51,250 nucleotides of DNA from Thermoplasmata archaeon. Its GTDB lineage: Archaea; Thermoplasmatota; DTKX01; VGTL01. Within the stretch, counting starts at the first letter, position 1. Each line of letters opens with the position of its first letter. The notes under the pieces were generated by a model, which did no database searches, was not told the origin of the DNA, and saw only the letters and a program-made list of their open reading frames with translations. The stretch is from contig JAWCLH010000005.1 of NCBI GenBank assembly GCA_038851035.1, positions 1-51,250 of the forward strand, given 5' to 3'. Made by a program: the position numbers and the translations under genes. Shown in pieces: positions 2,346 to 49,609 of the stretch.

Positions 2346-2637
2346 AGGAGCCTTTCCGCCCTTCGACGCGACCGCAGGGGCCGTGATTCTTGACGAGACC
2401 TGCGCTCCGGCACTTTTCCTCCTACGCGCCCATCCGCGCGCGTGAGGCCCCTGCTCCCTCTCCGCCATCGTCGTTTCCCTCCACATTCAGCTCCCTCTCC
2501 GCCTCCACCATCATACCCCACCCTCATACCAATTCCGATTTCCTTTCCCTAGCTTCCCCTCCACGTCCTCCCCCCGGCCGCGTCGCCATTCATTTCCACA
2601 TTCCGCTCCACCGCGCAGCCTCTCACCATCCACGTTA
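2346..2637. other. Pyrimidine-rich (plus strand) spacer between pcc1 and the YhaM-like gene
   Basis: This stretch is dominated by C and T on the plus strand, so the strand pcc1 is read from is purine-rich. It is open in the pcc1 frame up to 2486 without looking like a protein domain. I see no RNA gene or clear TATA box. It belongs to the class of purine/pyrimidine-biased tracts described in the findings. Confidence 0.5.
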
Positions 2638-3627
2638 TCATTTTGTGTAGATCTCATTTCCTATCGCCCTCTGATACGACCAAGCGTCCTTCGTCTCCCT
2701 TGCAGCTTCTAGAATCTGCAGGAACTCCTTTGTCTGGGCGTCGGCGTCGTCGGCGAAGTGCAGCGCCGCCGTCTCCGGTATCTTCATCCCTTTGAGCCTG
2801 TTTTCTTCGAGGGTGCCGTGGTGCTGGAGCATCAGGTGGCCAAGCTTCATCATCAGCTCTTCCGGAAAACCGGGTATCGCCCCCGCCCTCTCGCTGACCA
2901 TCCTCTCCCCTATCGCGACGTGGCCGAGGAACCTGCCCCTGTCCGTCATTACTATGGTTGCCTTTGTTGCGTACTCCTCGAGCTTGCCGATGTCGTGCAG
3001 AATCGCGCCCGCGATGAGCAGGTCGCGGTCGAGCTCCGGATACGCGTCGCAGAGCGTCAGGCAGAGCTTCAGCACGTTGAGCGAGTGCTCCAGATTGCCT
3101 CCGAGATAGTTGTGATGATGGATGATCGCGGATGGAGAGGAGGAGTATTTCTCCACAAAAACAGGGTCTGAGAAAAAAGACTCCAATAGGGCCCTGAGAT
3201 GCTCGTTTTTTACGCTGCGCGCGATTCCGAGCAGCTCCTCCAGCATTTTCCCCCTGTCCCTCTTCGTCGACGGAAGGTACTCGGCCAGCTCCTCCTGCGG
3301 CACGCTCTCCACTTTCCTGAGCAGCTGGGTCCCCTCGTTCACGGTTATCACGGGCGCCTGCTCGAACTGGTCCATGGTGACTGTGCCCGTCAGCATCACC
3401 ACATCCCCGGGCTCGATGGAGGCGTAGAGCTCCATAACGGTCTTCGGGTCGCGCCCGCCCCAGTACTTCATCAGTATGCTTCCCGTTCTGTCAGAGAGCT
3501 GGAGTGAGAAGAACCTCCCCTCCTTCGCCCTGTACTCCCTGACCGCCTCCTTCCCCCTGACCGCGAAGCGGCCCATCACGGGGCTGCCGTCGGGGAGCGC
3601 GCGGATGTCCGAGATGTACTGTCTCAT
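2638..3627 (-). CDS. YhaM-like 3'-5' exoribonuclease (OB fold plus HD domain)
   Basis: A 329-residue protein with two parts. Residues about 10-105 look like an OB-fold nucleic-acid-binding domain (FFSLQLSDRTGSILMKYWGG, GDVVMLTGTVT). Residues about 150-310 are an HD phosphohydrolase domain with HHHNYLGGNLEHS (170-182) and the metal-binding HD pair in AGAILHDIGKLEEY (H211, D212), then HLMLQHHG. This order and length match the YhaM/Cbf1 family, Mn-dependent 3'-5' exoribonucleases best known from Gram-positive bacteria; archaeal members have not, to my knowledge, been well studied. The role here in RNA decay or maturation is inference. The ATG at 3627 lies about 35 bp from a TATA-like box at 3661-3670. 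It is divergent from the S2P gene. Confidence 0.85.
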   Translation of the reverse strand: MRQYISDIRALPDGSPVMGRFAVRGKEAVREYRAKEGRFFSLQLSDRTGSILMKYWGGRDPKTVMELYASIEPGDVVMLTGTVTMDQFEQAPVITVNEGTQLLRKVESVPQEELAEYLPSTKRDRGKMLEELLGIARSVKNEHLRALLESFFSDPVFVEKYSSSPSAIIHHHNYLGGNLEHSLNVLKLCLTLCDAYPELDRDLLIAGAILHDIGKLEEYATKATIVMTDRGRFLGHVAIGERMVSERAGAIPGFPEELMMKLGHLMLQHHGTLEENRLKGMKIPETAALHFADDADAQTKEFLQILEAARETKDAWSYQRAIGNEIYTK

Positions 3628-3660
3628 GGTCCCACGGGGCGCTCAAACCACCTCGGCCCT

Positions 3661-3670
3661 TATTTACTTT
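3661..3670 (-). promoter_or_regulatory. TATA box for the YhaM-like gene
   Basis: Minus-strand AAAGTAAATA about 35 bp before the ATG at 3627, an A/T island in otherwise GC-rich sequence. Confidence 0.5.
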
Positions 3671-3696
3671 GTCTGGTAGGTATCATCAGACCTCAA

Positions 3697-3705
3697 CCTT
3701 AATCT
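3697..3705 (+). promoter_or_regulatory. TATA box for the site-2 protease gene
   Basis: CCTTAATCT about 28 bp before the ATG at 3730, implying a very short or absent leader. With the box at 3661-3670 it makes a divergent promoter pair. Confidence 0.45.
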
Positions 3706-3729
3706 ACACCATCCCCAATCACGCGGGCG

Positions 3730-5121: not shown

Positions 5122-5277
5122 CCCGCCCGGAGCGCGGCCCCTCTATCCACGAGCGTGCCCCTCCGGCTTTTCCGGAGACTGGCAGGCGATGCTCGGGGTC
5201 TGGCGACGGGGGGCCACGCCGGTGTGGTGGCGGCCGGGGAAAACGGCGCGGCCTGAGTAGCCATCAGCCACAGGGGC

Positions 5278-5907
5278 TCAGAGCTTCGAAAGATACTCCG
5301 GAGGAATCTCCTTCGTGATGAACACTGTCTTCCCAGCGCGCTTGATCACCACCCCGCCCTCAACCGCCCCCTTTGCATCCACCCTGAGAATCACTGGCTT
5401 CTCAGTCCTGTGGGAGCCGGCGTCGGCGGCGCTCTCGGGTGTGAGGCTCAGGTGGACGTGCTTCCTGTCCGAGGGTTTCAGGCCAGTCTCGAGGAGAATC
5501 GGCACCTCCTCCTCCGTCGCGGGGTAGTAGAGCTCGTCAGGTATGCCGTCGGTCGGGAGGTCCAGGTCGACCTCGATGGAGTGGCCATATGTCGCCCTGA
5601 CCCTCCCCCTCTCCACCTGGTATCGTCCCTTCGGATCGGTCGCCGCCATCGCGACGATGTGGTGTGGCCTGAGCCAATGGAACTGGCTGCGCCTCTGGCG
5701 CACCGCCTCCACAAGCGCTCGGATATCCACCCAGCCGTGCCCATCGAGCGAGAGCTGGAACCTCTCGGGGAAGTGCCTCAGAACCCCCGCCAGAATTCTG
5801 CCGAGCTGGTCAACCTCCTCGTCGTTCATAAGGAATTTGCCCGGCTCCTTGCAGTTTGGGCAGGCGTCGGCCCTGAAGTAGCCGTGCGTTCTGCACTCCT
5901 TTATCAA
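5278..5907 (-). CDS. kptA: RNA 2'-phosphotransferase (Tpt1/KptA)
   Basis: A 209-residue member of the Tpt1/KptA family, which transfers a 2'-phosphate from RNA to NAD+, giving ADP-ribose 1'',2''-cyclic phosphate and nicotinamide. The N-terminus carries a small zinc-finger-like element (CRTHGYFRADACPNC, residues 5-19), common in archaeal members. Conserved family segments follow: GVLRHFPERFQLSLDGHGWV, a GRYQVERGRVRATYGHS block and LKPSDRKHVHLS. In eukaryotes the enzyme finishes tRNA splicing; in archaea, whose tRNA ligase leaves no 2'-phosphate, its substrate is unclear. The start is TTG at 5907, preceded by a purine-rich ribosome-binding site (GGGGGGAG) four bases upstream. TATA-like box at 5939-5948. 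Confidence 0.92.
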   Translation of the reverse strand: MIKECRTHGYFRADACPNCKEPGKFLMNDEEVDQLGRILAGVLRHFPERFQLSLDGHGWVDIRALVEAVRQRRSQFHWLRPHHIVAMAATDPKGRYQVERGRVRATYGHSIEVDLDLPTDGIPDELYYPATEEEVPILLETGLKPSDRKHVHLSLTPESAADAGSHRTEKPVILRVDAKGAVEGGVVIKRAGKTVFITKEIPPEYLSKL

Positions 5908-5938
5908 GAGCTCCCCCCATCACCGTATCGAGCTTCTC

Positions 5939-5948
5939 GCTTAATTGG
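5939..5948 (-). promoter_or_regulatory. TATA box for kptA
   Basis: Minus-strand CCAATTAAGC about 33 bp before the TTG start at 5907. Confidence 0.4.
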
Positions 5949-5982
5949 TTTGCGCAAGAGGGTTGGCGTGGGGTAAAAAAAT

Positions 5983-6000
5983 AAATTATATGGTGCATAT
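5983..6000 (+). promoter_or_regulatory. TATA box and small dyad before the aminotransferase
   Basis: AAATTATATGG lies in a 25-bp A/T-rich island about 35 bp before the GTG start at 6025. It overlaps a short inverted repeat, ATATG-gtg-CATAT (5988-6000), which could be an operator half-site pair or chance. Confidence 0.5.
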
Positions 6001-6024
6001 GGGGGGAGCGAGGGGGGGCCCCAA

Positions 6025-6903
<879 letters not shown>

Positions 6904-6924
6904 AGAAAGGTCGGACAGGGCTTC

Positions 6925-24392: not shown

Positions 24393-25262
24393 TTATGGAG
24401 GACGCGAAGACCGGTGTCGGGGTTCACGCTCTTTCCCGTCGAGCCTCTCCCTGTCCCTCGTCCCCGGAGCCTTCGGAACCACGATGAACCCCCTCTCAAG
24501 AGTCCCCACGACCTCGCACAGGCTTGGGTCGCTCCTCCAAAGAAGCACCGTGTAGGCGGCCATGACGGCGTCAAGGGCGTCGCCGTGGTGGTCGAGCTGA
24601 GCTCCACTCATCGCCTTAAGCTCATTTATTTCATGCCTGAGCGGGCCGAGCTCCACACGCGGGTAGCCGGAGGGCAGTCGGTCCTCCAGCATCTCATGTA
24701 GCCTCATTAGAGCGTCCCTTTTCACACTCAAAGGTACGTTCTTGAACCGTGGCCGCTCCCCGAATATTTTCATCCACGAAGCCGTCGGGTAGACCTCGAC
24801 GACAGCCCTCTGCGCGCGTGAGGGGAGCTCCGCAACTAGTTCATATCCGGAGCCAAGGGCCCGGAGCTTTTCCAAAATAGCGACTCCCCTGCAGCCCCCG
24901 TACCAGCGCCGGAATCTGGTAGGGTTGGTAGGAAAGACACGAATTCCCATCCTCATCAACGCAAGCTCGCAGTCCCGGATGCGGGCAGTTTCCGCCGGAA
25001 CCACGAGTGGCGCGTCGATTCCCAAGGTGCACTCCCCGGGGCCCATGCGCAGACAGGCCTCAACTATCTCATTGTCACCAGAGCATTCCCTGTACTCGAG
25101 CACAGTCCCCTCCTCATCGAGGGAGACAAGAGCAGTTCTCTTCTCATCTGGGTCAGGAGCCATCTTCCATGCGAGGTCCACACCGATGTATATCAACACT
25201 GAAACCTCCCGCGTATCACCCCGGCGCCCATCTATCCTCTGGAGACCAGAGACAAGGTACAT
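24393..25262 (-). CDS. DUF429 family protein (predicted RNase H-like fold)
   Basis: A 289-residue protein. The strand IYIGVDLAWKM (near 26-36) with an acidic residue, a second acidic segment TLGIDAPLVVP, AVVEVYPTASWM and, near the C-terminus, DHHGDALDAVMAAY (with Asp residues) form the DUF429 pattern, predicted to be an RNase H-like nuclease fold with spaced acidic metal ligands. Activity is unproven. The last 25 or so residues are charged low-complexity sequence (Arg, Glu, Lys). The ATG at 25262 is about 20 bp from a TATA-like box at 25281-25292; a GTG about 60 bp further in is an alternative. It is divergent from the AbrB-like gene. Confidence 0.8.
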   Translation of the reverse strand: MYLVSGLQRIDGRRGDTREVSVLIYIGVDLAWKMAPDPDEKRTALVSLDEEGTVLEYRECSGDNEIVEACLRMGPGECTLGIDAPLVVPAETARIRDCELALMRMGIRVFPTNPTRFRRWYGGCRGVAILEKLRALGSGYELVAELPSRAQRAVVEVYPTASWMKIFGERPRFKNVPLSVKRDALMRLHEMLEDRLPSGYPRVELGPLRHEINELKAMSGAQLDHHGDALDAVMAAYTVLLWRSDPSLCEVVGTLERGFIVVPKAPGTRDRERLDGKEREPRHRSSRPP

Positions 25263-25280
25263 TTTGAGCGTTTCGGAAAT

Positions 25281-25325
25281 AATGATAAAACCAAATTATT
25301 TTGTTGCACCACCAAACTTATATAC
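25281..25325. promoter_or_regulatory. Divergent promoters between DUF429 and AbrB-like genes
   Basis: Minus-strand GGTTTTATCATT (25281-25292) serves the DUF429 gene; plus-strand CTTATATAC (25317-25325) serves the AbrB-like gene, 34-50 bp from its candidate starts. The 100-bp region is the most A/T-rich stretch nearby and would be a natural site for control by the AbrB-like protein. Confidence 0.5.
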
Positions 25326-25373
25326 ATCTGGCGCGTATAGGACAATCGGGGGGAGAAACTGTCTGCGCTTGAG

Positions 25374-25634
25374 GTGGACCTTGAAGAGGTGGAGTACGTT
25401 CAGGACACCAAACTGACCATAAGGGGCTCGCGCAGGCGTACCACCATTCCCAAGGCGATTGTGGAGAGGCTTGGGCTCTCCAACGGTAGCAGCATACGCT
25501 GGGTGCTCTTCAGGGATGGTAAAATTATCGTACTCCCGGTGTCCGTGACTATCCGGCGCGCGGTTCCCCCTCGGGGCTCGGTCTGCTCCTCCCCCTCTCG
25601 CCGGAATACCGTATTCCCGCGGAAGAAGTCGTGA
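25374..25634 (+). CDS. AbrB/SpoVT-MazE-like DNA-binding protein
   Basis: An 86-residue protein with a swapped-hairpin AbrB domain at residues about 10-55: TKLTIRGSRRRTTIPKAIVE, then LGLSNGSSIRWVLFRDGKII. The TIP(K)xIVERLGL pattern is the family's core. The C-terminal 30 residues are Arg/Ser/Pro-rich and unconserved. Such proteins are dimeric transition-state regulators or antitoxins; no toxin gene follows, so a regulator is likelier. The GTG at 25374 starts the domain closely; a CTG at 25359, in frame and four bases after GGGGGGAG, is another possibility. The TauE/SafE transporter gene begins 30 bp downstream, probably in the same operon. Confidence 0.85.
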   Translation: MDLEEVEYVQDTKLTIRGSRRRTTIPKAIVERLGLSNGSSIRWVLFRDGKIIVLPVSVTIRRAVPPRGSVCSSPSRRNTVFPRKKS

Positions 25635-25664
25635 GGTGAGTCGCTGCCCGCGAATGCCCTGCAG

Positions 25665-26408
25665 ATGCTGATGATTTTTTTCTTCGCTTTCATCTACGAG
25701 CTGGTCGACTCCTCGCTGGGGCAGGGCTATGGGACCCTTGGCACCCCGACCTTTGTTCTTCTCGGGTTCAACCCGAAGGTTGTGGTTCCGGCTATACTGC
25801 TCTCGCAGGCGACAGGGGGCCTTGTCGGCGCCTACTTCCACAACCGCTTCAGAAACGTTGACTTCAACGGCTGGGGGACTGGGGACGCAAAAAAGGTCTA
25901 TTTCATCGTCGTCTGCGGAATTACGGGCGTGATAGTGTCTAGCGCTATTGGAATCAGGCTCTCCGGGACGGTTCTCTCGTATTATATCGGAATCGTGGTG
26001 CTGGTGATGGGCGCGCTGATTCTCTCTGGAGTTACCATCAGATTCACATGGCTCAGAATGGGCGTGATAGGGGGCATCAGCGCCTTCAACAAGGGTATAT
26101 CGGGCGGAGGCTACGGACCGGTCGTCGCCGGGGGCCAGACCATAATTGGAGTTGACGCAAAAGCCGCCGTCGGTGTGACGGACCTCGCTGAGGCCCCCAT
26201 CTGCCTCGCAGGCTTCGCCGTCTGGAAGTTACTCGGCGGTACGCCGGTCGTAGAGGTGACCCTGCCGATGTGCGTCGGCGCGGGCCTGGCACCCGTTATC
26301 GGCGCCTATATAACCTTCAAGACACCGCCCCGTCTCTTTAAAAGAGTGCTCGGCGTCGTTCTCCTGATTCTCGGGGCGCTCTGTTTATTCAAAATTCTCA
26401 ACCCCTGA
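25665..26408 (+). CDS. TauE/SafE family anion exporter
   Basis: A 247-residue membrane protein with seven to eight hydrophobic segments. The first segment holds FFFAFIYELVDSSLGQGYGT, the TauE/SafE repeat motif, and the second half repeats it in GGISAFNKGISGGGYGPVVAGGQ. The family moves sulfite, sulfoacetate or other organic anions across the cytoplasmic membrane. ATG at 25665 or 25671 can start it. It follows the AbrB-like gene by 30 bp; regulation by that protein is inference. No sulfur-oxidation gene is nearby. Confidence 0.92.
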   Translation: MLMIFFFAFIYELVDSSLGQGYGTLGTPTFVLLGFNPKVVVPAILLSQATGGLVGAYFHNRFRNVDFNGWGTGDAKKVYFIVVCGITGVIVSSAIGIRLSGTVLSYYIGIVVLVMGALILSGVTIRFTWLRMGVIGGISAFNKGISGGGYGPVVAGGQTIIGVDAKAAVGVTDLAEAPICLAGFAVWKLLGGTPVVEVTLPMCVGAGLAPVIGAYITFKTPPRLFKRVLGVVLLILGALCLFKILNP

Positions 26409-26605
26409 TTTCGGACTTACCAGAGCACGCATGAGTGGGCCACCCCAACGCCCGGCTTGGGTAATAGCAGCACTTCGGTCCCGAGGGGGAGCAAAACACT
26501 GGCTTGGTGGCCGTTCACAGCACTCGCGTGAGAGTCCCGAGGGGCGGTCTTCTAGGCCAAGGTTTATCTCACAGATGTGATTTCGCTCCTTGGGAGCTGA
26601 GCGCG
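26409..26605 (+). promoter_or_regulatory. Upstream region of adenylate kinase gene, with TATA box and short repeat
   Basis: GGTTTATCTC (26561-26570) is a TATA-like box 36 bp before the ATG, and GGGAG (26592-26596) may bind the ribosome. The 11-mer GTCCCGAGGGG occurs at 26478-26488 and 26534-26544. I see no RNA gene. Confidence 0.45.
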
Positions 26606-27250
26606 ATGCCAAAAAATATCGTAATATTCGGCGCGCCGGGGGCCGGAAAGGGAACGCTTGCGGAGAAGATAAAGAAGCTGAGCCCGGTCGTCCACATAAG
26701 CACCGGAGACCTCTTGCGAGAAAACGTGCGCGAAGGGACCGAGCTCGGGAGGAAGGCAAAGAGCTTTATGGACGCGGGGAAGCTTGTTCCTGACGAGCTG
26801 GTCATAGACATGGTCAGGGAGAGGCTTTCCAGGGATGACATTGGGGAGAGGGGCTTTCTGCTCGACGGCTTTCCCCGGACGCTCGAGCAGGCGAGGGCGC
26901 TCGATGAGTTCTCAAGGGTCGACGCGGTCATCGTGATCGACATAAAGAAGGAGGAGCTGAGGAAGCGCATCCTCGGCAGGCGCTCATGCCCTAAGTGCGG
27001 GAAGATATACAATATCTACAACCCCGAGCTCATGCCCAAAAGGGAGGGCGTGTGCGACGCCGACGGCGAGAGGCTCATCCAGCGCGCGGACGATAACGAG
27101 GAGACTTTCGAGAAACGCTGGAGCACCTACCTCGAGCAGTCGGAGGGCGTGATAAAGTACTACTCCAGGAGGCCGGAGCTGGTTCACCACATCGACGGGA
27201 CGCGCACAATGAACGTCTCTGATGAGGAGCTAAGGAAGATAGTCGCCTGA
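26606..27250 (+). CDS. adk: Adenylate kinase (bacterial-type, zinc lid)
   Basis: A 214-residue adenylate kinase of the long-lid type, converting ATP plus AMP to two ADP. The P-loop is GAPGAGKGT (residues 8-16); STGDLLREN, DGFPRT and the arginine-rich segments follow. The LID (near 125-165) contains CPKCGK and VCDADGE, a likely Cys3-Asp zinc site. Many archaea use a short, trimeric AdkA instead; this bacterial-type enzyme occurs in some euryarchaea. The ATG at 26606 is set by the family's N-terminus; the longer frame from 26504 adds 34 unrelated residues. Confidence 0.97.
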   Translation: MPKNIVIFGAPGAGKGTLAEKIKKLSPVVHISTGDLLRENVREGTELGRKAKSFMDAGKLVPDELVIDMVRERLSRDDIGERGFLLDGFPRTLEQARALDEFSRVDAVIVIDIKKEELRKRILGRRSCPKCGKIYNIYNPELMPKREGVCDADGERLIQRADDNEETFEKRWSTYLEQSEGVIKYYSRRPELVHHIDGTRTMNVSDEELRKIVA

Positions 27251-29702: not shown

Positions 29703-30527
29703 ATGGTGCTGGAGGAGTATAGGGAGCAGGCTGAGCCCTACCTAACCCCTGTTGCGAGGTGGTTCGTCCACACCCACCCCAACACGATGACTTGGCTCGC
29801 CTTTTTCTTTGCCGTCATCGCGGGCCTGACCTTCCATGCAACATCCTATCTGGGCGGCGGAGGTGTCTATATCCTCCTCCCTGGCAGTGCCATGATATTC
29901 CTGAGCGCCCTCTTCGACGCCCTCGATGGTCGGGTGGCGCGGATGCGCAGGATGGAGTCAAGGCGTGGTGACTTCCTCGACCATGTTCTCGACAGGTATG
30001 CCGATGTTGCGATAATCGGCGGGATATCGGTTAGCCCCTTCTGCGACTTTCGCATCGGCCTTTTGGCGATTTTGGGTGTCGTCTTTGCCTCATACATGGG
30101 GACGCAGGCGCAGGCGGTCGGGGTGAGGAGGAACTACAGCGGAATGCTCGCCCGAGCCGACAGGCTCGTTCTTTTAATAGCGGCACCACTCGCTCAGATG
30201 GGCGTGGAGATGTCGGAGTGGATAGGCTGGATCGCTTCGGACCACAGGATGCACTTCACCGTCGCTGGCTTCCCTGTGGCTCTCTCGATTATCGAGCTGA
30301 TGATGATATGGTTCGCCGTCGCCGGCCACACCACCGCCGTCCAGCGCGCCGTGAGCACCTGGAACGAGCTGAGTGAGCGTGAGAGGGGAGAAGGAGGCGA
30401 CAGGAAGGACCTTGGGAAACATGGGGCGCGCAGGGAGAGGCGTGAGAGGATGAGGAGGGGCCCCACTAGCCGGGAGGGAGGGAACGGGAGACCGGGAGGA
30501 GATGAAAGGGGTGATGAGGGGAAATGA
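29703..30527 (+). CDS. CDP-alcohol phosphatidyltransferase (archaetidylinositol phosphate synthase-like)
   Basis: A 274-residue membrane enzyme. The family motif D(x2)DG(x2)AR(x8)G(x3)D(x3)D is complete: D72-D75-G76-A79-R80-G89-D93-D97. Membrane segments lie near 30-50, 55-72, 100-130, 150-170 and 185-215. The enzyme joins a CDP-activated lipid to a polar head group; the archaeal context suggests CDP-archaeol with inositol phosphate, but glycerol phosphate or serine are possible. The last about 50 residues (RERGEGGDRKDLGKHGARRE and on) are a highly charged low-complexity tail encoded by purine-rich DNA. Its stop overlaps the next gene's start (ATGA). Confidence 0.9.
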   Translation: MVLEEYREQAEPYLTPVARWFVHTHPNTMTWLAFFFAVIAGLTFHATSYLGGGGVYILLPGSAMIFLSALFDALDGRVARMRRMESRRGDFLDHVLDRYADVAIIGGISVSPFCDFRIGLLAILGVVFASYMGTQAQAVGVRRNYSGMLARADRLVLLIAAPLAQMGVEMSEWIGWIASDHRMHFTVAGFPVALSIIELMMIWFAVAGHTTAVQRAVSTWNELSERERGEGGDRKDLGKHGARRERRERMRRGPTSREGGNGRPGGDERGDEGK

Positions 30528-32692: not shown

Positions 32693-35625
32693 CGTGACTC
32701 CCCCCCGACGCCTCCGTCCTTTTCCTCGTCCTTTTTTTTCACGGCCGAAATCGTGTCATTCTCCCGGTTCCCGGTTCTGACCGTCGCGCTACTAGAGTCA
32801 GCCCCCGCCTCCTCCACGGCCCCTTTCCCACTTTCTTCCACTGTCATCATTTCCCCCTCCCTCCCCTTTTCCTCCACCCGGGATGCGAGATATGGCGCCC
32901 TGATCACCCTCACGAGCTCCTCCGCAGTCTTCCTCCCGACGCCCTTGACCCGCGCCAGCTCCTCCGGAGAGGCGCGGAAGACCCCCTCCACGCTCCCGAA
33001 GTGCGCAAGCAGCCTCTGGGAGAGCACACCGGATACGTGGGGAAGACCCTCGACGATGAACTGCTGTCTCTCCGCCAGCGACATCGCGCCCTTCTCGCCC
33101 CTGACGGCCGGCATCCTGCCCTCTCCCCTCTCCCTGCGCGCTATCGCCGCGAGGAGCTCTGCGGTCTCCCTCTCGTCACGGGTGAAGACGATGGGAACGC
33201 CGTAGTCGACGAGAACCGAGGCAACGGCCCCCAGAACCGATTCCCTGCTCAGGCCGCCGCTCGTCAGGGGGCTCTCACCTTCGATCAGGAGCAGGGGCCT
33301 CATGTAGGCATTGCGCAGGGCCCTGAGCTGCTGGAAGAGCCTCCCCTCGAGAAGGGAGATCAGGAAGTCACGTGATTCCTTCCTCTCCACCCCCACCCTG
33401 TCAGATAGGATAAAGTCGCCGACCGCGAGCTGCCTTGGGGAGACCCTGACGTTGAGCTTCGATAGCTCTCGGACCACGCCGGAGCTGAGCTCGCGGTTGT
33501 CAACCACAACCTCAGGCCTCGCGTCCTCGAGCTGCGCGGAGAAGTCGAGCAGGGTGGACTGCCCTCTGCTTCTTTTTCCAGCAATTCCTGCGAGGCCACC
33601 CTCCGCAATTGCGCGCTTCCTGCGCCGGCCGGCGCGCCGGTCGGCTCCAGCCTCCTTTCTTTTCGCAAGGGCTGTTTCTCCTGCGGCGGGGGCCTCTTCG
33701 ATACCGTCTCCTCCTCCCGCCTTCGTACCACTATGTACGGAATAGACCAGCCCTTTCCCCTCCTCCTCCGCCCCGCTTCCATAAAAAGCCCCCATCCCTC
33801 CAACTCCCTTTCCGTTGCTTCCCTCGCCCGCAGCTCCTCCTTCACCTCGGCCGTTGTTGCCGGGTGCGCTGCCGCTTCTCTCGAGGTCGCTCCTCCCCTC
33901 TAAGTCTCCATTAGCCGCGGCGCCTGCTGGTACCACAGGTTCTTCAATCGGGGTCTCATTCTCCAGCGTCACCCCCTCTGTCTCCGCCTCATACGGGCGC
34001 GCCTGTTCGGTGGGTCCGGTTTCCGGTGCCGCCAGAGCCTCTCCAGCCGCGCTCTCGATGTACTTCATCGTGTCGCGCATCGAGGGGAAACCCACCGATA
34101 TCTTCTTGGCGAGCTGGCGCCTGAGCATGTCCAGCTCCTCCATCATTCTCTTCTCCTTCCTCCGCGCGGACCAGTAGTAGGCCTCGTCCCTCGTTCCCTT
34201 CGCCATCAGTATGACGACCTTCCCAGGCATCCTACGGCCAGTCCTGCCTCTCCGCTGTATCGTCCGAATCTCGGATGGTACCGGCTCGTAGAAAACCACC
34301 ATTTCCGTGCTTGGGATGTCCAGCCCCTCCTCCCCGACGGAAGTCGCCACCAGCACGTTGTACCTCCCGTCCCTAAACTGCTGAATCAGCTCCGCCTGCT
34401 CTTTTTGGGAGAGGCCCTCGTCCTCTCCCCGCGTCGCCTGCCCGACGAACCTGACGGGCCGGCAACCCCGGATACCCTCCAGCACCCTCGCGACAGTATC
34501 GGAGGTGTCCCTGTAGTGCGTGAAGACGATGATGCGAGAATCAGGCTTCAAACGGAGCTGGTCCGCAACCACCTTCCCGACCTTCTCGAGCTTCGGATGC
34601 TCGATCGTGATGTGCCTAGCCAAGAAGCGCGCCCGGATTATGTCCTCGTCCATCATAACGATTCTGGCGGCGCGTGAGTGGCCCTTGCCACTTGCCTTCT
34701 CCTCGAGTCTGTGAAAATAACTGTTCAGGGCCGAGACGCCCTGAGTCTCTAGTAGCTCCAAGGCGTGGTTGATCTCGACCGCCGCCGCCTGAACCGCAGC
34801 CGCGTGGAAGAGCGAGGGGGGAGGTCTCCCCCCGGCCGAGGCCATCCTCTGGCGAATCGCCCTCTGGGCCTCCAGAAGTTCCTTCACCGAGTGCCTCTCG
34901 CCCTTTCGGATCAGCCCGAAATCCTGAAGCACCTTCACCTGCTTCTTAAGTGCATTCTTCAGATACCCGAGCACCCTGAGCAGGTCCGGAGGCATCTCCA
35001 CGACCAACCAGTGAACGCGGATGTCGTGGACATAGGGCCTCACGTCCGGGTCATACTCCCTTCTGATTTCCACCCGCTTTATGTTAAGGTTTCCGCAAAC
35101 CTCGAGAATTTTCTCCGCCGTGCTCCCAGGCGATGCGGTGATGCCGAGCGCCAAACCCGCAGGCCCGTACTTCTCAGCAATGAAGACGTAGGCGTAATTC
35201 CCCACCGCCCTATGGGCCTCGTCGTAAATTATTAGTGAGAAATCGTCTAGGTTTAGGGCCCCCGAGACTAGATCGTTCAGGATCACCTGCGGCGTGGACA
35301 CAATGACAGGGCTCTCCCTCCACTCTCCCGCCCTCTTCGAGGGCTCAACCTCGCCGGTGAAGGTCCGAATCGGCCCCAAGGTGAGCAATCTCTCGAGCGT
35401 CTGGGCGTGCTGAAGCACCAGGGGCTTGGTCGGCGCGAGGAAAAGGGCCCTTCCCCCGCGCCTCCTGAGTGTTTCGGCAATCACGAGCGCCGCGATGACA
35501 GTCTTGCCCAGGCCCGTCGGGAGAACCACGAGCGTCGATTCCTCCACACAGGCCCGGCTGATGCTGATCTGGTACGCCCGGGCCTCTATCACACCAGGCC
35601 GAATGAACGGGTGCTCCACGTACAT
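32689..35625 (-). CDS. hef: Hef: SF2 helicase fused to XPF-type nuclease
   Basis: A 978-residue protein of the Hef/Mph1/FANCM family. The helicase part has Walker A PTGLGKT (36-42), DEAH (135-138), a helical insertion at about 215-330 and motif VI IQRRGRTGR (near 460). After a long linker comes the ERCC4 nuclease (about 705-840) with VVDNREL, GDFILSDRVGVERKESRDF and a metal-binding core, and a helix-hairpin-helix dimerisation region (EELARVKGVGRKTAEELV, near 890). Hef processes stalled forks and is restricted to euryarchaea. The linker (about 560-700) is Gly/Glu/Ser low complexity from purine-rich DNA, and the last 40 residues are acidic. The ATG at 35625 is about 30 bp from a TATA box. Confidence 0.97.
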   Translation of the reverse strand: MYVEHPFIRPGVIEARAYQISISRACVEESTLVVLPTGLGKTVIAALVIAETLRRRGGRALFLAPTKPLVLQHAQTLERLLTLGPIRTFTGEVEPSKRAGEWRESPVIVSTPQVILNDLVSGALNLDDFSLIIYDEAHRAVGNYAYVFIAEKYGPAGLALGITASPGSTAEKILEVCGNLNIKRVEIRREYDPDVRPYVHDIRVHWLVVEMPPDLLRVLGYLKNALKKQVKVLQDFGLIRKGERHSVKELLEAQRAIRQRMASAGGRPPPSLFHAAAVQAAAVEINHALELLETQGVSALNSYFHRLEEKASGKGHSRAARIVMMDEDIIRARFLARHITIEHPKLEKVGKVVADQLRLKPDSRIIVFTHYRDTSDTVARVLEGIRGCRPVRFVGQATRGEDEGLSQKEQAELIQQFRDGRYNVLVATSVGEEGLDIPSTEMVVFYEPVPSEIRTIQRRGRTGRRMPGKVVILMAKGTRDEAYYWSARRKEKRMMEELDMLRRQLAKKISVGFPSMRDTMKYIESAAGEALAAPETGPTEQARPYEAETEGVTLENETPIEEPVVPAGAAANGDLEGRSDLERSGSAPGNNGRGEGGAAGEGSNGKGVGGMGAFYGSGAEEEGKGLVYSVHSGTKAGGGDGIEEAPAAGETALAKRKEAGADRRAGRRRKRAIAEGGLAGIAGKRSRGQSTLLDFSAQLEDARPEVVVDNRELSSGVVRELSKLNVRVSPRQLAVGDFILSDRVGVERKESRDFLISLLEGRLFQQLRALRNAYMRPLLLIEGESPLTSGGLSRESVLGAVASVLVDYGVPIVFTRDERETAELLAAIARRERGEGRMPAVRGEKGAMSLAERQQFIVEGLPHVSGVLSQRLLAHFGSVEGVFRASPEELARVKGVGRKTAEELVRVIRAPYLASRVEEKGREGEMMTVEESGKGAVEEAGADSSSATVRTGNRENDTISAVKKKDEEKDGGVGGESR

Positions 35626-35651
35626 TTTCGGAAAAGCACACGGCTCTGCGC

Positions 35652-35662
35652 GGTATTAAAGG
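35652..35662 (-). promoter_or_regulatory. TATA box for the hef operon
   Basis: Minus-strand CCTTTAATACC, 27-37 bp before the ATG at 35625. Confidence 0.55.
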
Positions 35663-35712
35663 TTGCAATGAAGTGGGTGAAAGTGGCCCTAAGAGCCAGA
35701 CTCACTCAGAAA

Positions 35713-35907
35713 TCAGGTCAATGGGTGGGTCTTCCGGTAGTGGGTCACATACCCGGCTATCCTATTCCGAAGTCCTACGTATTTAACGTCAGTTAGCTCC
35801 GCTACCTTGGCCTTATTATGCTGGTAGTCCGTTGTGAACTGGTCGGGATAGGTCTTCAGTAGCTCGATTGCCACACGCTTTATATAGGTCGGACGGATGC
35901 GGCCCAT
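35713..35907 (-). CDS. rps17e: Ribosomal protein S17e (eS17)
   Basis: A 64-residue small-subunit ribosomal protein. It starts MGRIRPTYIKRVAIELLKTY and continues QFTTDYQHNKAKVAEL and KYVGLRNRIAGYVTHYRK, a full match to archaeal S17e in length and sequence. It is found only in archaea and eukaryotes. It has its own strong promoter (35948-35960), which overlaps the 3' end of the radical SAM gene upstream; 35908-35959 is otherwise a short leader of about 20 bases. Confidence 0.98.
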   Translation of the reverse strand: MGRIRPTYIKRVAIELLKTYPDQFTTDYQHNKAKVAELTDVKYVGLRNRIAGYVTHYRKTHPLT

Positions 35908-35947
35908 TCCTCTCTTCCTCGCTTTGGGGCGTCAGATTGGGGTTCTT

Positions 35948-35960
35948 GTATATATAAATT
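35948..35960 (-). promoter_or_regulatory. Strong TATA box for rps17e
   Basis: Minus-strand AATTTATATATAC, 41-53 bp before the ATG at 35907, giving a leader of roughly 15-25 bases. Confidence 0.65.
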
Positions 35961-37153
35961 TAGTAGCCCATCAGCCCACAACACCTGCTGCAGAGGGGGA
36001 AGACACCATCGGGTGCGCTCCGGAGGGCCCTCCTGAAGGCCCTGAATTTTTCATTGTTGTAGATGTCGAGGAGGGGGGTTTCTCGAATATTTCCCATCAC
36101 GATATCCGGGAAGTCGCGACAGTTGACAACGTCCCCGTTCGGCATTATGTCAACTTGGAACCATGGCGCGAGGCACCTCTTCCAGCCTAGAAAATTCTCG
36201 GGATGGCGGTAGTAGGTCTCGAGCTCCCACGTCTCGAGCTGAGGGATGAAGAGGACTGGGGGGTCCATCCTAGATTTTTTAATAATCTCAACCTGCCTCG
36301 CGAGCAGGGCGGTGTCTATCTTAGAGGTGTCGCGGACATAGCTTTTCCAGGCGAATGGCTCGACCCCCAGAGCCCCCTTCATGACTTCGGAGTGCCTCCT
36401 CCCGACCTCCTCGCTCGTGAACCAAGAGTAGTAAACAGCCCTCACCTCGGGTCCAAGCGCCTTCGCCTCCTCAAGTGTCTCCAGGAGAACCGCTTGATTT
36501 GTCTCCGAAATAGTGGTGAGAGTGTAGACCACGGGGGTCGTCTTGCGTAGCTGCTTCTTGACCTCCTGAAGCCTCCGGAGCCCCCTCTCCATCGTGTCGA
36601 AGGCCCCCTTTAGCCCTCTGCACCGGTCGTGGATTTCCCGCGGCCCGTCGAGTGAGACACAGACCATGTCCCAGCCGCTCCTCACGATTTCCTCCGCGTT
36701 TTTCTCGAGCCCGACGCCGTTGGTCACAACCTGCACAGACAGACCATGCCGCTTCATATAGTCGACAAGGGGAACGAGGTCTTTATAGAGGAAGGGCTCG
36801 CCCCCGGTTATATAGATATGGGGCCTGAGGGGAGAGACTTCATCCACGAGGTTCATGTATGTTTCCAGAGGAACCTCGCCGACAACCTTGGGTGCGTCCG
36901 GTAGCCTGTTATAGCCCCGTTCTCCCCACTGGCCGCATATCGCGCATCTGTGGTTGCACCGGTGCGTGATTCTGATGCTGACCATCCAGAGTGAGGCGCT
37001 CCGGCCGTCAGGTCTTCTGTAGTCCCTCTTGGAAAGCCCGTATTTGTGATACACCCCCCGTATCATCTTCAGAAAAAGGCGCGGGTGGCGGCACATCGGG
37101 GTCCAGAGCTGGGTCGGGACCCTGTTGAACCTTTTCAGGGAGAACTCGGTCAT
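35960..37153 (-). CDS. Radical SAM enzyme with SPASM-like C-terminus
   Basis: From the ATG at 37153 this is a 397-residue protein. The 4Fe-4S site is CNHRCAIC (C66, C70, C73), in the canonical CxxxCxxC spacing, followed by YITGGEPFLYKDLVPLVDYM. The C-terminus holds CLAPWFQVDIMPNGDVVNCRDF and CSRCCGLMGY, a SPASM-like set of Cys for an auxiliary cluster. Such enzymes modify peptides, sugars or cofactors by radical chemistry. The first 50 residues (MTEFSLKRFNRVPTQLWTPM) place a basic segment ahead of the barrel. A TATA-like box at 37181-37190 supports the start; the open frame to 37327 is not used. It is divergent from the MurG-like gene and may act on the same envelope glycan. Confidence 0.9.
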   Translation of the reverse strand: MTEFSLKRFNRVPTQLWTPMCRHPRLFLKMIRGVYHKYGLSKRDYRRPDGRSASLWMVSIRITHRCNHRCAICGQWGERGYNRLPDAPKVVGEVPLETYMNLVDEVSPLRPHIYITGGEPFLYKDLVPLVDYMKRHGLSVQVVTNGVGLEKNAEEIVRSGWDMVCVSLDGPREIHDRCRGLKGAFDTMERGLRRLQEVKKQLRKTTPVVYTLTTISETNQAVLLETLEEAKALGPEVRAVYYSWFTSEEVGRRHSEVMKGALGVEPFAWKSYVRDTSKIDTALLARQVEIIKKSRMDPPVLFIPQLETWELETYYRHPENFLGWKRCLAPWFQVDIMPNGDVVNCRDFPDIVMGNIRETPLLDIYNNEKFRAFRRALRSAPDGVFPLCSRCCGLMGY

Positions 37154-41102: not shown

Positions 41103-42119
41103 ATGCCCCATTTCTCCGGAGGACCTGGCCCCTTGTGCCGTCATAGCCCTTCAAAGGCCAGCCCGTCCATGTCCCGCATGACCTCCCCAGAGACCGCTCC
41201 TTTGTCGCCCGGCTCCCGCGCCGGTGTGTTCCCGGGCAGAGCGCGTTACATATCACCCATCCCATGGCCCCGCACCCTCGCCGCGGACATTGAAGGAACC
41301 CTGACAGACAAGTCCGGCCGCCGGACCTCGGCCCAGCTTGTCGGGGCTCTCAGAAGGTTGGAAGTGCAGGGGGTCTTAGTGATTCTCTGTTCGGGGAGGG
41401 GCGTGGAGTACCAGAGGACGCTCAGGAGGAGGTGGGGTCTGAGCCCCGAAGCCCCTCTGGTCGCTGAGAATGGATGCTCGATTTTTATTGGGGGCAGGGA
41501 GATACTGACCTATCGACCCACCGGCTTCAGGAGGGACAAGCTCCTTAAACGGCTGCAAGCGATGGGGGTCGGGGCCGTCGGCGAGCTTGACCCGGAAAAG
41601 AGGCACGCGATAACCGTTTATCCGAGAGGCTTCATGAAGGGAGGGGACTACACTGAAGAGGACATAGATCGCATCTGCGATTTCCTGAGAAAAGCGCTAA
41701 GAGGGGTCCAGTGTCGCATATTCCGGACCTCGGCCTCGGGAGAGGTGCTCCCGGCCGGTACGGATAAGGGGAGGGGGCTGAGGCTCCTCTTGCGCGAGCT
41801 CCGAATTCCTCCGTTGGAGGTGCTTTTTATAGGCGACGGACAGAACGATGTGCCGGCGGCGCGCTTCGTCAAACGAGCGGGGGGCAAGGTGGGGGTGCCG
41901 GCAAACGCTACAGGGGAGATGAGAGCGCTGGCGGACTATGTGTCGCGGGGAGCGTTCTACGAGGGCGCGCTCGAAATTCTAGAGGCCTTCTTTAATCGGT
42001 TCTCTTCGCAAAACAAAAGAGATAATAGAAGGGGGAGGCATTTAAGTCTTGATGAGGCTGAGGGGCATCAGGGCCGTCGTCACGGGCGGCGCGGGCTTCA
42101 TCGGCTCGCACATAGTTGA
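41103..42119 (+). CDS. HAD phosphatase of the archaeal phosphoglycolate phosphatase family, with DIE in place of DxD
   Basis: A 338-residue HAD (Cof/SPP-type) phosphatase. The core starts near residue 57: LAADIEGTLTD holds the nucleophile Asp62, but the general acid two residues on is Glu64 where the family has Asp. VILCSGRGVEYQRTLRRRWG and LVAENGCSIF are the next conserved blocks, TDKGRGLRLLLRELRI carries the Lys, and VLFIGDGQNDVPAARFV the metal-binding DxxND. Thermoplasma and Pyrococcus relatives hydrolyse phosphoglycolate. The first 55 residues are Pro/Ser/Arg-rich and unlike the family, so the real start may be later (41169 or 41178). The last about 25 residues overlap the epimerase gene by 68 bp and are unconserved. 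The surroundings suggest a sugar-phosphate substrate. Confidence 0.8.
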   Translation: MPHFSGGPGPLCRHSPSKASPSMSRMTSPETAPLSPGSRAGVFPGRARYISPIPWPRTLAADIEGTLTDKSGRRTSAQLVGALRRLEVQGVLVILCSGRGVEYQRTLRRRWGLSPEAPLVAENGCSIFIGGREILTYRPTGFRRDKLLKRLQAMGVGAVGELDPEKRHAITVYPRGFMKGGDYTEEDIDRICDFLRKALRGVQCRIFRTSASGEVLPAGTDKGRGLRLLLRELRIPPLEVLFIGDGQNDVPAARFVKRAGGKVGVPANATGEMRALADYVSRGAFYEGALEILEAFFNRFSSQNKRDNRRGRHLSLDEAEGHQGRRHGRRGLHRLAHS

Positions 42120-43200
42120 CTCGCTACTCTCGGAGAATGATGTGGTGGTGGTAGACGACTTTTCAACAGGCAAAGAGGAGAACCTCATCGCCCACGGCGC
42201 GGGTCCGCGTTTCGCGGATGGGGATGCGGAACCAATAGGGGGAGTGGAGGGAGGTGGCATGAGGCGCGCCGAAGGATTCGCGGGGCCCCCTGCCGAGATG
42301 GAGGGAGAGGGCGGGAGCAGCGGCAGGTGCGCGAGAGGGCCCAGGAAAGTCCCGCTCACGGGGGAGGGAGCAAGGGGGGGGAGAAGGAGGGGGCGAGAAT
42401 TTGCCCGCCGGCGTGGGCTGATAATCCTCAGGGGCTCGGTGACTGACGAAGGGCTCCTCCGACTCGCGCTCAGGGACGCGGACGTCGTCTTCCACCTAGC
42501 TGCCATTCCCGGAGTTCCTGCGAGCGTCCGAGACCCCGCCGGAACGGCGCGCGTGAATCTCATGGGAACCTTGGCGGTGCTTGAGGCCGCGCGCCACTGC
42601 GGCGTGAGCAAGGTCATTTTCTCGTCCTCGTGCGCGGTTTATGGAGACGCCAGACCGCCGGTCAGCGAGACGACACTGCCGTGCCCGAAATCGCCCTACG
42701 CGGTCCAGAAGCTAGCTGGTGAGCACCTGTGCCGCGTCTACCACGAGCTCCATGGCCTGAAGACGGTTTGCCTGCGCTTATTCAACGTTTTCGGTCCCAG
42801 GCAGGACCCCGAATCCGAGTACGCGGCCGTGATCCCACGGTTCGTGAAGGATATGAGGGAAAGGGGACGAGTGACGATATTCGGCGATGGAAGGCAGACG
42901 AGGGACTTTATTTACGTCGGGGATGTTGTGAGGGCCACCCTTCTAGCGGCGGAGAGGAGTTCCGCTGATGGGAGGGTCGTGAATGTCGCAACTGGAAAGG
43001 GGACGAGTGTGAGCGAGCTCGCGAGGGAGCTTGCAGCCGTCCTCGGCCTCCCGCTGCGGGTCAGACGGGCCAGCCGTAGGGAGGGGGACATAAGGCACTC
43101 ATGGGCCGACACGACGCTCGCCCAGAAAGTTCTGGGCTTCAGGGCCTGCGTTCCGCTTCGCAGAGGCCTCCGCGCGCTCGCCTCCGCCCTCCCTTGCTGA
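42052..43200 (+). CDS. NAD-dependent sugar epimerase/dehydratase with a low-complexity insertion
   Basis: A 382-residue extended SDR of the UDP-glucose 4-epimerase type. RAVVTGGAGFIGSHIVDSLL binds NAD; VFHLAAIPGVPASVRD, SSSCAVYGDARPPVSE and the catalytic YAVQK follow, then LRLFNVFGPRQDPESEYAAV and the DFIYVGDVVRAT block. Residues about 48-122 (42193-42415) are an insertion of Gly, Arg and Glu between the first Rossmann strands; its DNA is almost pure purine with GGGAGGG runs. Relatives have about 15 residues there. The fold around it is intact, so the enzyme may still work. Start: ATG at 42052 behind GGGGGAGG. Its 3' end overlaps the convergent TPR gene by about 100 bp. Confidence 0.88.
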   Translation: MRLRGIRAVVTGGAGFIGSHIVDSLLSENDVVVVDDFSTGKEENLIAHGAGPRFADGDAEPIGGVEGGGMRRAEGFAGPPAEMEGEGGSSGRCARGPRKVPLTGEGARGGRRRGREFARRRGLIILRGSVTDEGLLRLALRDADVVFHLAAIPGVPASVRDPAGTARVNLMGTLAVLEAARHCGVSKVIFSSSCAVYGDARPPVSETTLPCPKSPYAVQKLAGEHLCRVYHELHGLKTVCLRLFNVFGPRQDPESEYAAVIPRFVKDMRERGRVTIFGDGRQTRDFIYVGDVVRATLLAAERSSADGRVVNVATGKGTSVSELARELAAVLGLPLRVRRASRREGDIRHSWADTTLAQKVLGFRACVPLRRGLRALASALPC

Positions 43201-46918: not shown

Positions 46919-47042
46919 CCGCTCTGCGGGCTCTGGCCACCTCTACCGGAGCCCGTCAATGACTAGACTGGGGGCCATGTGATTTGGGAAGGGATGGAAT
47001 TGGCGCTGTCCAGTAACGACACCACCTCATGGGATGGCATAA

Positions 47043-48629
47043 TCACGCTAGGGCCATCTTCCTCGTCAGGGCAAGGGGGACCAGAATAACGACAAGAACG
47101 GTGGCGTAGGGGCCGACTGGTGTCTGCTGGGGAGCGGACGCCTCCACTCTTATGCTGGTGCCGTAGACCGATAGCCCACCCCACTCGACGAGCGGGAAAA
47201 ACACATAGGTGCCGGGTGAGAGGAGACGAATCGTTAGGGCCAGGCGGGCCTCCCTCCCCGGAGCGAGGGTGGGGACGGGTATGTGGGGCGTCTCGGCGAT
47301 TCTCCCCTTCTCCACGAGGCCCCTCTCTTTGAAGTCGAGGAAGAAGTGGGCCTTCGCGCCCTGAATCGTCTGGTTGGAATGATTGCGCAGAATCACCCTA
47401 CGCGTCAGGAGCGCCCCCGTCTCTCCATAGCATACCTTCTCCCCGCTCTCGAGCTGGAGGAGAATGGGCGAGCGCACGGAGACCGGTCTGGAGATATTGC
47501 TTGTGGTTCCGTCAAGATTTCCCCTGAAATCTAGAAAGAAGCTACCCCCCGTTTCCGAAGCCCGGCAGATTTTGGGCTGGATTGAGAATTCCCTCGGCAC
47601 CTGCACGCCCGGCCTCATTCCGCCGAGCTCGATGTGTCTGTCCCACTCCACTCTGGATTTGACGAGACTTATGAACTCCTCGAAGCGCTCTTCAGCTGGG
47701 TAGTCGTTGAGTTCTCCGCGCGCCTCGATGTCCGTTCTGAGCCTTACCTCGACTCTGGCCTCCATGACTGGGAGCGATTTCCTGCTCTCAAAATAGACTG
47801 TGACCGTGGTCCTTTTCCCGAGCTCGAAGACGTCGCTCGATAGCTCCACGCCGAGAAGCTCCCTCGCCGCCAACGTGAACTCGAATCTCGTCACATTATA
47901 GGCGCCAAGGGGCCCGACGTCATAGCCGTAGATGGCGACCCCATCCCCGATGCTCACGACTGGCTGAATGAGTCGGGTGCCGAGTGAGGGCAGGGATGAG
48001 CCGTTGAAGGTGAAGAGGCGAGTTGCCCCGGGGGGAATACTCCCGACCTCAAAGGTCACAGGGGCGGTTGGGTCCGACGCTGGAGGGGCATCCGCGACGT
48101 CCCTAGCCTGGAGCGTTAGAGTGGGGTTGAGTGGCAAGGCGCCCCAATTGGTGAAGTTCACCCGCGCCGTGTAGCTCTGCCCGACTCCTAACATAGCGGT
48201 CCTTCCGTTGTCGCAGGGCAGCTCGAACTTGCACGAGAGCGGCTGGAGGAACACGGCGGCCGCCAGATGCCTGCTTGAGATTTCTCCTCTCCTCATAACT
48301 GCGGTCAGGAAGTACTCACCCGGCGCAGGCGCGGACACTTTCACCTCCAGAACGAATCTCCCACCGCCGGAGAGCGTCACGTTGGTGACCGTGGGCGAAA
48401 CGCTCAGGCCGGGGGCTGAGACCTCGACCGTGAAGCAGGCCTCGATGGGCAGGTAGCTGTTGAGAGAGACATTGGCGATCATCACCCTTCCCGTGAGTTC
48501 GAAAAAGAAGGACCTCTCCCAGATGACCTCGAACTCAATGCCCGTGGTGGTCTGGGGCGATGAGGACGGAACCAATGCCAGCAGAATAAGCGCAGCGAGC
48601 GAGGCGCGCGCGAGAGCCACGGCCCTCAT
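47043..48629 (-). CDS. Membrane-anchored surface protein of the ABC cassette
   Basis: From the ATG at 48629, 528 residues. A signal peptide (MRAVALARASLAALILLALV) precedes about 450 residues of beta-rich sequence with Ig/'NEW3'-like features: APGLSVSPTVTNVTLSGGGR, NFTNWGALPLNPTLTLQARD and AYNVTRFEFTL, i.e. strands spaced as in extracellular structural repeats. Near the C-terminus GPYATVLVVILVPLALTRKM is a membrane anchor with a short basic end. The start overlaps the stop of the ABC permease gene (ATGA), so it is translationally coupled; it may be a substrate-binding, accessory or secreted partner of that transporter. Function is not recognisable. Confidence 0.8.
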   Translation of the reverse strand: MRAVALARASLAALILLALVPSSSPQTTTGIEFEVIWERSFFFELTGRVMIANVSLNSYLPIEACFTVEVSAPGLSVSPTVTNVTLSGGGRFVLEVKVSAPAPGEYFLTAVMRRGEISSRHLAAAVFLQPLSCKFELPCDNGRTAMLGVGQSYTARVNFTNWGALPLNPTLTLQARDVADAPPASDPTAPVTFEVGSIPPGATRLFTFNGSSLPSLGTRLIQPVVSIGDGVAIYGYDVGPLGAYNVTRFEFTLAARELLGVELSSDVFELGKRTTVTVYFESRKSLPVMEARVEVRLRTDIEARGELNDYPAEERFEEFISLVKSRVEWDRHIELGGMRPGVQVPREFSIQPKICRASETGGSFFLDFRGNLDGTTSNISRPVSVRSPILLQLESGEKVCYGETGALLTRRVILRNHSNQTIQGAKAHFFLDFKERGLVEKGRIAETPHIPVPTLAPGREARLALTIRLLSPGTYVFFPLVEWGGLSVYGTSIRVEASAPQQTPVGPYATVLVVILVPLALTRKMALA

Positions 48630-49609
48630 CTGACCACCTCGCTTCTCCTGAAGAACCACCCCGCCAGTGCAGCAAAGGCCGCGGCCTCCAGCGCGAGCGC
48701 GGCCGCCGGTAAGGGACTATCGAGCGCGCCGTCGACCAAGTCGACCGTGGTGAGGTACTCGTGGTATCCCGGGCTCAGAATCATTGCCCCCCCTGCCATC
48801 TCGACCGGGAAGTACCCCGATGTGAAGAATATTAGAAGCACCGCAACCAGTCCCGCGAAGGGCGCACCGCGTCCCCTTACCGCGGCAGATATGAGGAGGA
48901 GGAGGGAGAGCCCCGCGAAGAAGAGCAACGTTGCGGAGAGCAGCCTCGCAAGCCACAGAATCGCAAATTGTTCCCCGAGCCCCTGTGTGAGATAGACGGC
49001 ACAGAGCGCCGCAAGGGTCAGTAGCCAGGCGATGATGGGGACGAGCGCCTTTGCGGCGAGCATAACGCCCCGGCTCGCGGGCGTTCCGAAGAGAAGCGGG
49101 GCCGTACCCCTCTCATGCTCCCTCGAAATTGCGTCGACCCCGAAGACGAAAGCACAGCCCAACGCCGCGAGCACCACGAGAGGCCCCTGGGATATGGCCG
49201 TCTCATAAGGAAAAGTGTCAGGGGGCAGGTACGAACCGAGCAAGAGAAGGGCAGCGAGGAATAGGGAGTAGGCAAGGACCTTCCAGTTCCTTATGTTGAT
49301 AAGAAGCTCCTTGCGCAGCGAAGCCGAGAGGGTGCGGAGCGGGCCATAACCGCCCTTTTTATTATCACTCATGGCGGGAGCTCTCCCACCGGCCCGGAAA
49401 GGACCGGCACCTGTGGCTCCTCTCTCCTCGTAACGATTCGCACTTCTTCCCACCCTTCCCTCCGCCCCCTCCTTCCCATCCCGCTCCCTAGCCGAGCCAA
49501 CATTCGCCAACGCCCCGTCTTCCCCTCCCCCCCTTTCGTCCCATCCCTGCGCTCTCATGCCTTCTCTCTCTCCTCCCCCCGATTCTATCTCTCTATCCGC
49601 CGCCGCCAT
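48626..49609 (-). CDS. ABC-2 permease with a low-complexity N-terminal extension
   Basis: From the ATG at 49609, 327 residues. The membrane part (from about residue 80) is an ABC-2-type permease: SLRKELLINIRNWKVLAYSL, then six hydrophobic segments (VVLAALGCAFVFGVDAISRE; WLLTLAALCAVYLTQGL; LSATLLFFAGLSLLLLISAA and others), ending FAALAGWFFRRSE. The first 79 residues are Gly, Arg and Glu-rich and encoded by purine-rich DNA. Start 49609 overlaps the ATPase stop (TAATG), which supports translation of the extension; but the family-like part starts at an ATG at 49372, so a shorter protein of 248 residues is also possible. It forms a transporter with the ATPase. Confidence 0.82.
   Translation of the reverse strand: MAAADREIESGGGEREGMRAQGWDERGGGEDGALANVGSARERDGKEGAEGRVGRSANRYEERGATGAGPFRAGGRAPAMSDNKKGGYGPLRTLSASLRKELLINIRNWKVLAYSLFLAALLLLGSYLPPDTFPYETAISQGPLVVLAALGCAFVFGVDAISREHERGTAPLLFGTPASRGVMLAAKALVPIIAWLLTLAALCAVYLTQGLGEQFAILWLARLLSATLLFFAGLSLLLLISAAVRGRGAPFAGLVAVLLIFFTSGYFPVEMAGGAMILSPGYHEYLTTVDLVDGALDSPLPAAALALEAAAFAALAGWFFRRSEVVR

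What the first reader, a model, noticed from the sequence alone, without database searches (positions are those of the whole stretch)
2346..49609. Purine-biased low-complexity tracts attached to or inserted in unrelated genes
At least five unrelated genes carry Gly/Arg/Glu-rich segments, absent from their families as I know them, encoded by DNA that is almost all purine on the coding strand with GGGAGGG-type runs: the epimerase insertion (42193-42415), ABC permease N-terminus (49373-49609), Hef linker (about 33500-33950), phosphatidyltransferase tail (30380-30527) and the open stretch before pcc1 (2346-2486). They keep the reading frame in coding regions. This suggests a genome-wide process that expands or inserts purine-rich sequence, or protein tails selected together. 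I know of no name for it.
Basis: partly seen in the sequence, partly recalled or inferred. Interest (0 to 1): 0.7.

Follow-up and report, generated by a model that had tools for sequence, protein, structure and literature searches.

The report
Purine-rich filler between and inside genes
In this archaeon, stretches of DNA rich in A and G on the gene-sense strand have grown between genes of the same operon and, more rarely, inside genes as floppy protein loops; the pattern is real and genome-wide, but it looks like tolerated filler with a strand bias rather than a new kind of genetic element.

Summary
Partly confirmed. Of the five places, only the epimerase segment is a clear insertion in a gene: 78 residues where 40 relatives have 2-9, modelled as a disordered loop. 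The ABC and pcc1 tracts are intergenic spacers; in the sister genome the ABC junction is 19 nt, here 236 nt. The Hef linker and phosphatidyltransferase tail have hydrophilic counterparts, of other composition, in orthologues.

The genome-wide pattern is real. In 831 kb, co-directional spacers carry 60-nt windows with at least 75% purine on the mRNA-like strand 43 times against 7 the other way (p = 2e-7); sampled relatives do not show this. Among 185 orthologue pairs with the only same-family genome, 17 genes here carry 21 low-complexity insertions; the clearly separable ones all keep the frame. The tracts share no sequence, end repeats or motif. Synonymous sites are only slightly purine-enriched.

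Best explanation: unrelated small DNA gains at tolerated sites, kept when purine-rich on the transcript strand, which gives an unobtrusive mRNA and a soluble disordered peptide. Mobile elements, missed genes, Shine-Dalgarno arrays and quadruplexes are not supported. A strand-biased insertion mechanism is not excluded. Closest known idea: purine loading (Szybalski's rule), whose synonymous-site feature is not met.

The parts
42052..43200 (+). NAD-dependent sugar epimerase/dehydratase gene that holds the insertion
   Evidence: Pfam Epimerase PF01370, E 4e-66; G001 orthologue 68% identical
42190..42423 (+). In-frame insertion in the epimerase, residues 47-124, net gain about 72 residues, 68% purine
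   Evidence: 40 relatives have 2-9 residues there; net gain 213 nt by tblastn, 72 residues by global alignment, no stops; residues 57-113 modelled with pLDDT below 50 in a core above 90; no copy elsewhere in the genome
49373..49608 (-). Expanded spacer between ABC ATPase and permease genes, purine-rich on the sense strand (74%)
   Evidence: 236 nt here, 19 nt in G001; homology of the permease starts at nt 49372
48626..49372 (-). ABC-2 permease gene, likely true extent
   Evidence: G001 orthologue aligns from residue 109 of the long ORF; Pfam ABC2_membrane_2
2346..2637 (-). Spacer upstream of pcc1, dense purine part from about 2448
   Evidence: tract 2448-2672; Pcc1 domain lies at residues 58-123 of the ORF
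33526..34053 (-). Interdomain linker of the Hef-like helicase-nuclease, longer than in G001
   Evidence: linker also present and variable in G001 and G003; third-position purine at expectation
30378..30524 (+). Hydrophilic C-terminal tail of the CDP-alcohol phosphatidyltransferase, 79% purine
   Evidence: orthologues in G001 and G003 have hydrophilic tails of other sequence

Best explanation
This archaeon has gained short stretches of unrelated, unconserved DNA at tolerated places in its transcription units: junctions between genes of an operon, gene ends, interdomain linkers and surface loops. Those that persist are purine-rich on the mRNA-like strand. Shown: lineage-specific length gain, frame retention in genes, strand coupling in spacers, absence of a repeat family. 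Inferred: the DNA arises by ordinary local insertions or duplications, and selection decides which gains and which base changes are kept, acting on the transcript (purine-rich RNA pairs little with other purine-rich mRNAs) and on the protein (Gly/Arg/Glu/Lys loops stay soluble and disordered). No special element or enzyme is needed.
For: Sense purine windows in co-directional spacers 43 vs 7, none of this excess in divergent or convergent spacers, and 13 vs 2 when both flanking genes have orthologues. 21 low-complexity insertions in 17 of 185 genes compared, purine above that of their own genes, p 0.004. Fourteen junctions tight in G001 and expanded here, mean purine 0.65. The insertions large enough to split a match are multiples of three without stops. 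Spacers are noncoding by periodicity and open-frame tests. No shared words, copies or end repeats. Genome-wide third positions are not purine-rich, 0.484, which speaks against a uniform transcription-linked substitution bias. Purine excess in insertions is mainly at amino-acid level: synonymous sites 439 vs 412, z 2.3.
Against: Predicted folding does not explain the choice of purine: the complementary pyrimidine-rich strand would fold even less (-0.202 vs -0.275 kcal/mol per nt), so the argument must rest on pairing between RNAs, which was not tested. Thermophily, the usual reason for purine loading, is unsettled: 16S GC 58%, no reverse gyrase, but an amino-acid estimate of 61 C. Only one sister genome; junction polarity is not established.
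Confidence: 0.5

Rival explanations
1. A strand-biased mutational mechanism adds purine-rich DNA to the non-template strand in transcribed regions, for example at stable G-rich RNA:DNA hybrids or by non-templated synthesis at breaks.
For: Strand coupling in noncoding spacers; small DNA-level excess in insertions, with Gly codons shifted to GGG and GGA; tracts that run across stop codons; faint direct repeats in three window tracts.
Against: Third codon positions genome-wide not purine-rich; repeated words in purine-rich spacers not above expectation; no Ku; G-quadruplex motifs not above expectation.
Confidence: 0.2
2. Ordinary thermophile-type purine loading of mRNAs (Szybalski's rule) plus ordinary variable linkers and tails; nothing else is needed.
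For: CDS purine 0.538, higher than G001 at 0.512; amino-acid estimate of growth temperature 61 C vs 35 C in G001.
Against: Third positions not purine-rich, 0.484; no reverse gyrase match over the cut-off; 16S GC only 58%; does not by itself explain gains of length at junctions and in the epimerase.
Confidence: 0.2
3. A mobile or repeated element that inserts in frame into genes, like the Rickettsia palindromic elements.
For: In-frame insertions in unrelated genes.
Against: No copies (11 weak hits against 18.6 for shuffled sequences), no shared words among spacers, no inverted or direct repeats at the ends above permuted pairs, no unusual fold.
Confidence: 0.04
4. Assembly or gene-calling artefact.
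For: A run of 78 G at G000:C1:95145 beside undetermined bases suggests a local assembly fault; gene calls here are home-made.
Against: Frame retention, sense orientation and position between conserved orthologous genes; the spacer bias holds where both flanking genes have orthologues.
Confidence: 0.06

Closest known systems
Purine loading of mRNA, Szybalski's transcription direction rule (Lao and Forsdyke 2000; polypurine tracts in thermophile mRNAs, Paz et al. 2004; both seen only as references in PMC2447400 and PMC1574309)
   Same: Purines cluster on the RNA-like strand of transcribed DNA
   Different: Here the excess is in spacers and in unconserved segments, synonymous positions are not purine-rich genome-wide, and length is gained
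Rickettsia palindromic elements inserted in frame in genes (from my own knowledge; related papers listed)
   Same: In-frame insertions in unrelated genes
   Different: No common sequence, no palindrome, no end signature
Low-complexity insertions in proteins, as in Plasmodium (from my own knowledge)
   Same: Disordered insertions at loops whose composition follows the genome
   Different: Purine-biased in a G+C-rich archaeon, and the same bias is seen in noncoding operon junctions

Membership tests
Purine loading (Szybalski's rule) of the thermophile type | Purine excess on the coding strand of genes | tested here: met
   CDS purine 0.538; G001 0.512
Purine loading (Szybalski's rule) of the thermophile type | Purine excess at synonymous third positions | tested here: not met
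   0.484 genome-wide
Purine loading (Szybalski's rule) of the thermophile type | High growth temperature | tested here: inconclusive
   16S GC 58%, amino-acid estimate 61 C, no reverse gyrase over the cut-off
Mobile in-frame elements (Rickettsia palindromic element type) | Copies share sequence | tested here: not met
Mobile in-frame elements (Rickettsia palindromic element type) | Palindromic sequence or terminal repeats | tested here: not met
Mobile in-frame elements (Rickettsia palindromic element type) | Insertion in frame in genes | tested here: met
Low-complexity protein insertions | Low-complexity, predicted disordered, absent from orthologues | tested here: met
   epimerase; 21 insertions in 17 genes:
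Slippage-grown microsatellite tracts | Internal repeats above base composition | tested here: inconclusive
   repeated 9-mers in purine-rich spacers 37 vs 47 expected, but a lag-12 autocorrelation with z 5 and faint direct repeats in three window tracts

The most novel reading that the evidence does not exclude
A transcription-coupled insertion mechanism in this archaeal lineage adds purine-rich DNA to the non-template strand, lengthening operon junctions and creating new disordered protein segments.
Probability: 0.12. Interest if true: 0.8.

Novelty: new variant of a known kind. Interest (0 to 1): 0.4.

Why it matters
The same strand-biased filler appears in noncoding operon junctions and, in frame, inside enzymes. 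That gives a natural set in which to ask whether new disordered protein segments start as noncoding-like DNA, and whether mutation or selection sets the purine content of transcripts outside codons.

Tried and rejected
Mobile element or repeat family: rejected. The 7-nt inverted repeat GCCCACG/CGTGGGC at the ends of the epimerase insertion looked suggestive, but over 21 insertions end repeats are no longer than in permuted pairs. Hidden coding sequence in spacers: no codon periodicity, open frames as expected. Arrays of Shine-Dalgarno sites: GGAGG 76 vs 67 expected. G-quadruplex selection: 11 vs 13.7. Stable RNA structure: none. Spliced or bypassed insertions: not supported, because the clear insertions are multiples of three without stops; I judged the frame-shifted hits spurious by eye (Gly-rich antisense matches and wrong partners). 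Non-homologous end joining: no Ku. Sharing of the pattern by the sister genome: its tracts are symmetric inverted microsatellites, a different thing. A first tblastn run with strict settings missed most insertions and was repeated. Third-position statistics over tracts chosen for high purine (genome-wide part) are circular and were replaced by the test on insertions, whose filter is by amino-acid content. Literature searches for purine-rich in-frame insertions in archaea found nothing directly on the subject.

Full report
Setting. The window is contig 5, bases 1-51250, of a 2.69 Mb genome (G000) in 50 contigs, 99% complete. Only one genome of the same family is held (G001), with three more of the same class. 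I took 831 kb of G000 and, in the end, 1.17 Mb of G001 as loci and called genes with a script of my own; gene starts are therefore approximate.

The five places. The epimerase insertion is real and unusual. The G001 orthologue reads ENLLGPAGHRIVRGS where this protein has ENLI, then 78 residues, then ILRGS. In an alignment of 41 proteins the other 40 have 2 to 9 residues there. AlphaFold gives a core mostly above 90 and a segment 57-113 below 50. The ABC tract is not an N-terminus: homology with G001 starts at residue 109, and in G001 the ATPase stop and the permease start are 19 nt apart where here they are 236 nt apart. The pcc1 tract is a spacer; its dense part is about 2448-2637. The phosphatidyltransferase tail and the Hef linker correspond to hydrophilic tails and linkers in orthologues that differ in sequence.

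Strength of the bias. In G000 there are 868 purine tracts against about 430 in local shuffles. With a stricter score, tracts in genes are 109 sense and 6 antisense. Spacers between co-directional genes have a sense purine window in 43 cases and the reverse in 7; divergent and convergent spacers have no sense excess. Of the sampled relatives, G002, G005, G018 and G045 have at most two such spacers each; G035 has 3 of 12, too few to judge; G003 gave only 3 spacers. G001 has as many tracts, but both orientations are equal in co-directional spacers, because the tracts are arms of inverted microsatellites.

Growth. Of 185 orthologue pairs at 45% identity or more, 17 G000 genes carry 21 low-complexity insertions of 15 or more residues (21% Gly, 13% Ala, 12% Pro, 11% Arg, 10% Glu); G001 has 10 in 9 genes, Pro/Ala-rich. 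Median purine is 0.62 against 0.52 (p = 0.024). The low-complexity filter was set by amino-acid content, not by purine, but Gly, Arg, Glu and Lys are among the residues it counts. Four low-complexity insertions large enough to split a tblastn match (213, 189, 186 and 156 nt) are all multiples of three without stops. At operon junctions, 14 are tight in G001 and 60 nt or longer here, mean purine 0.65; at least one of these (91 nt) looks like a missed gene start. In one operon with iron-sulphur redox genes three successive junctions overlap by 4 nt in G001 and are 84, 83 and 79 nt here, purine 0.73 to 0.77; at two of them the purine-rich stretch runs across the stop codon.

Level of the bias. 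In the window's coding segments the amino-acid-matched third position is close to expectation (z 0.6 to 2.7). Over the 21 insertions it is 439 against 412 (z 2.3), with Gly codons shifted to GGG and GGA. Genome-wide third positions are not purine-rich (0.484). So the coding bias is mainly at amino-acid level with a small DNA-level part, whereas the spacers, being noncoding, carry it at DNA level.

What it is not. No shared words between spacers beyond chance, no copies of insertions, no terminal repeats, no motif, quadruplex or structure excess, no Ku.

Mechanism. Shown: growth at tolerated sites, frame retention, sense coupling. Inferred: ordinary small gains filtered by selection on transcript and protein. 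A biased insertion mechanism remains possible. Avoidance of folding within the RNA is a weak reason for purine, since the pyrimidine-rich complement would fold even less; avoidance of pairing between RNAs is the better form of the argument and was not tested. Thermophile-type purine loading is the nearest concept (PMC1574309, PMC2447400), but its synonymous-site feature is not met and thermophily is unsettled.

Limits. One sister genome, about a third of each genome sampled, home-made gene calls, no expression data, polarity of junction changes not established.

Noticed in passing
L099:16140-16360 and L103:6700-6945 (G001): Sister genome carries intergenic inverted microsatellites: a purine arm of 8-nt units (GGCAGCAA) or 14-nt units, a short centre often with CGTCGTCCC, then a complementary pyrimidine arm.
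   Followed up: partly
G001 contig 12, genes at 25170-27245 and 33686-36880 (L166-L169 region of contigs 11-12): GGGTGCC heptamer arrays in G001, 12 intergenic and 6 in called genes, appear to be translated in frame as GAGCRVPGAG...HPAPGTR in HdrA-like proteins.
   Followed up: partly
41103-42119 and 42052-43200: A HAD-type phosphatase ORF runs 68 nt into the epimerase gene in another frame; its last 40 or so residues look like read-through beyond a lost stop or a frameshift.
   Followed up: no
G000:C1:95145-95274 (L074): A run of 78 G next to undetermined bases inside a Gly-rich ORF, probably an assembly fault.
   Followed up: no
G000:C1:151804-152191 (L112): A 388-nt purine-rich segment with imperfect repeats inside what looks like a B12-binding protein; third-position purine 98 vs 74 expected.
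   Followed up: no
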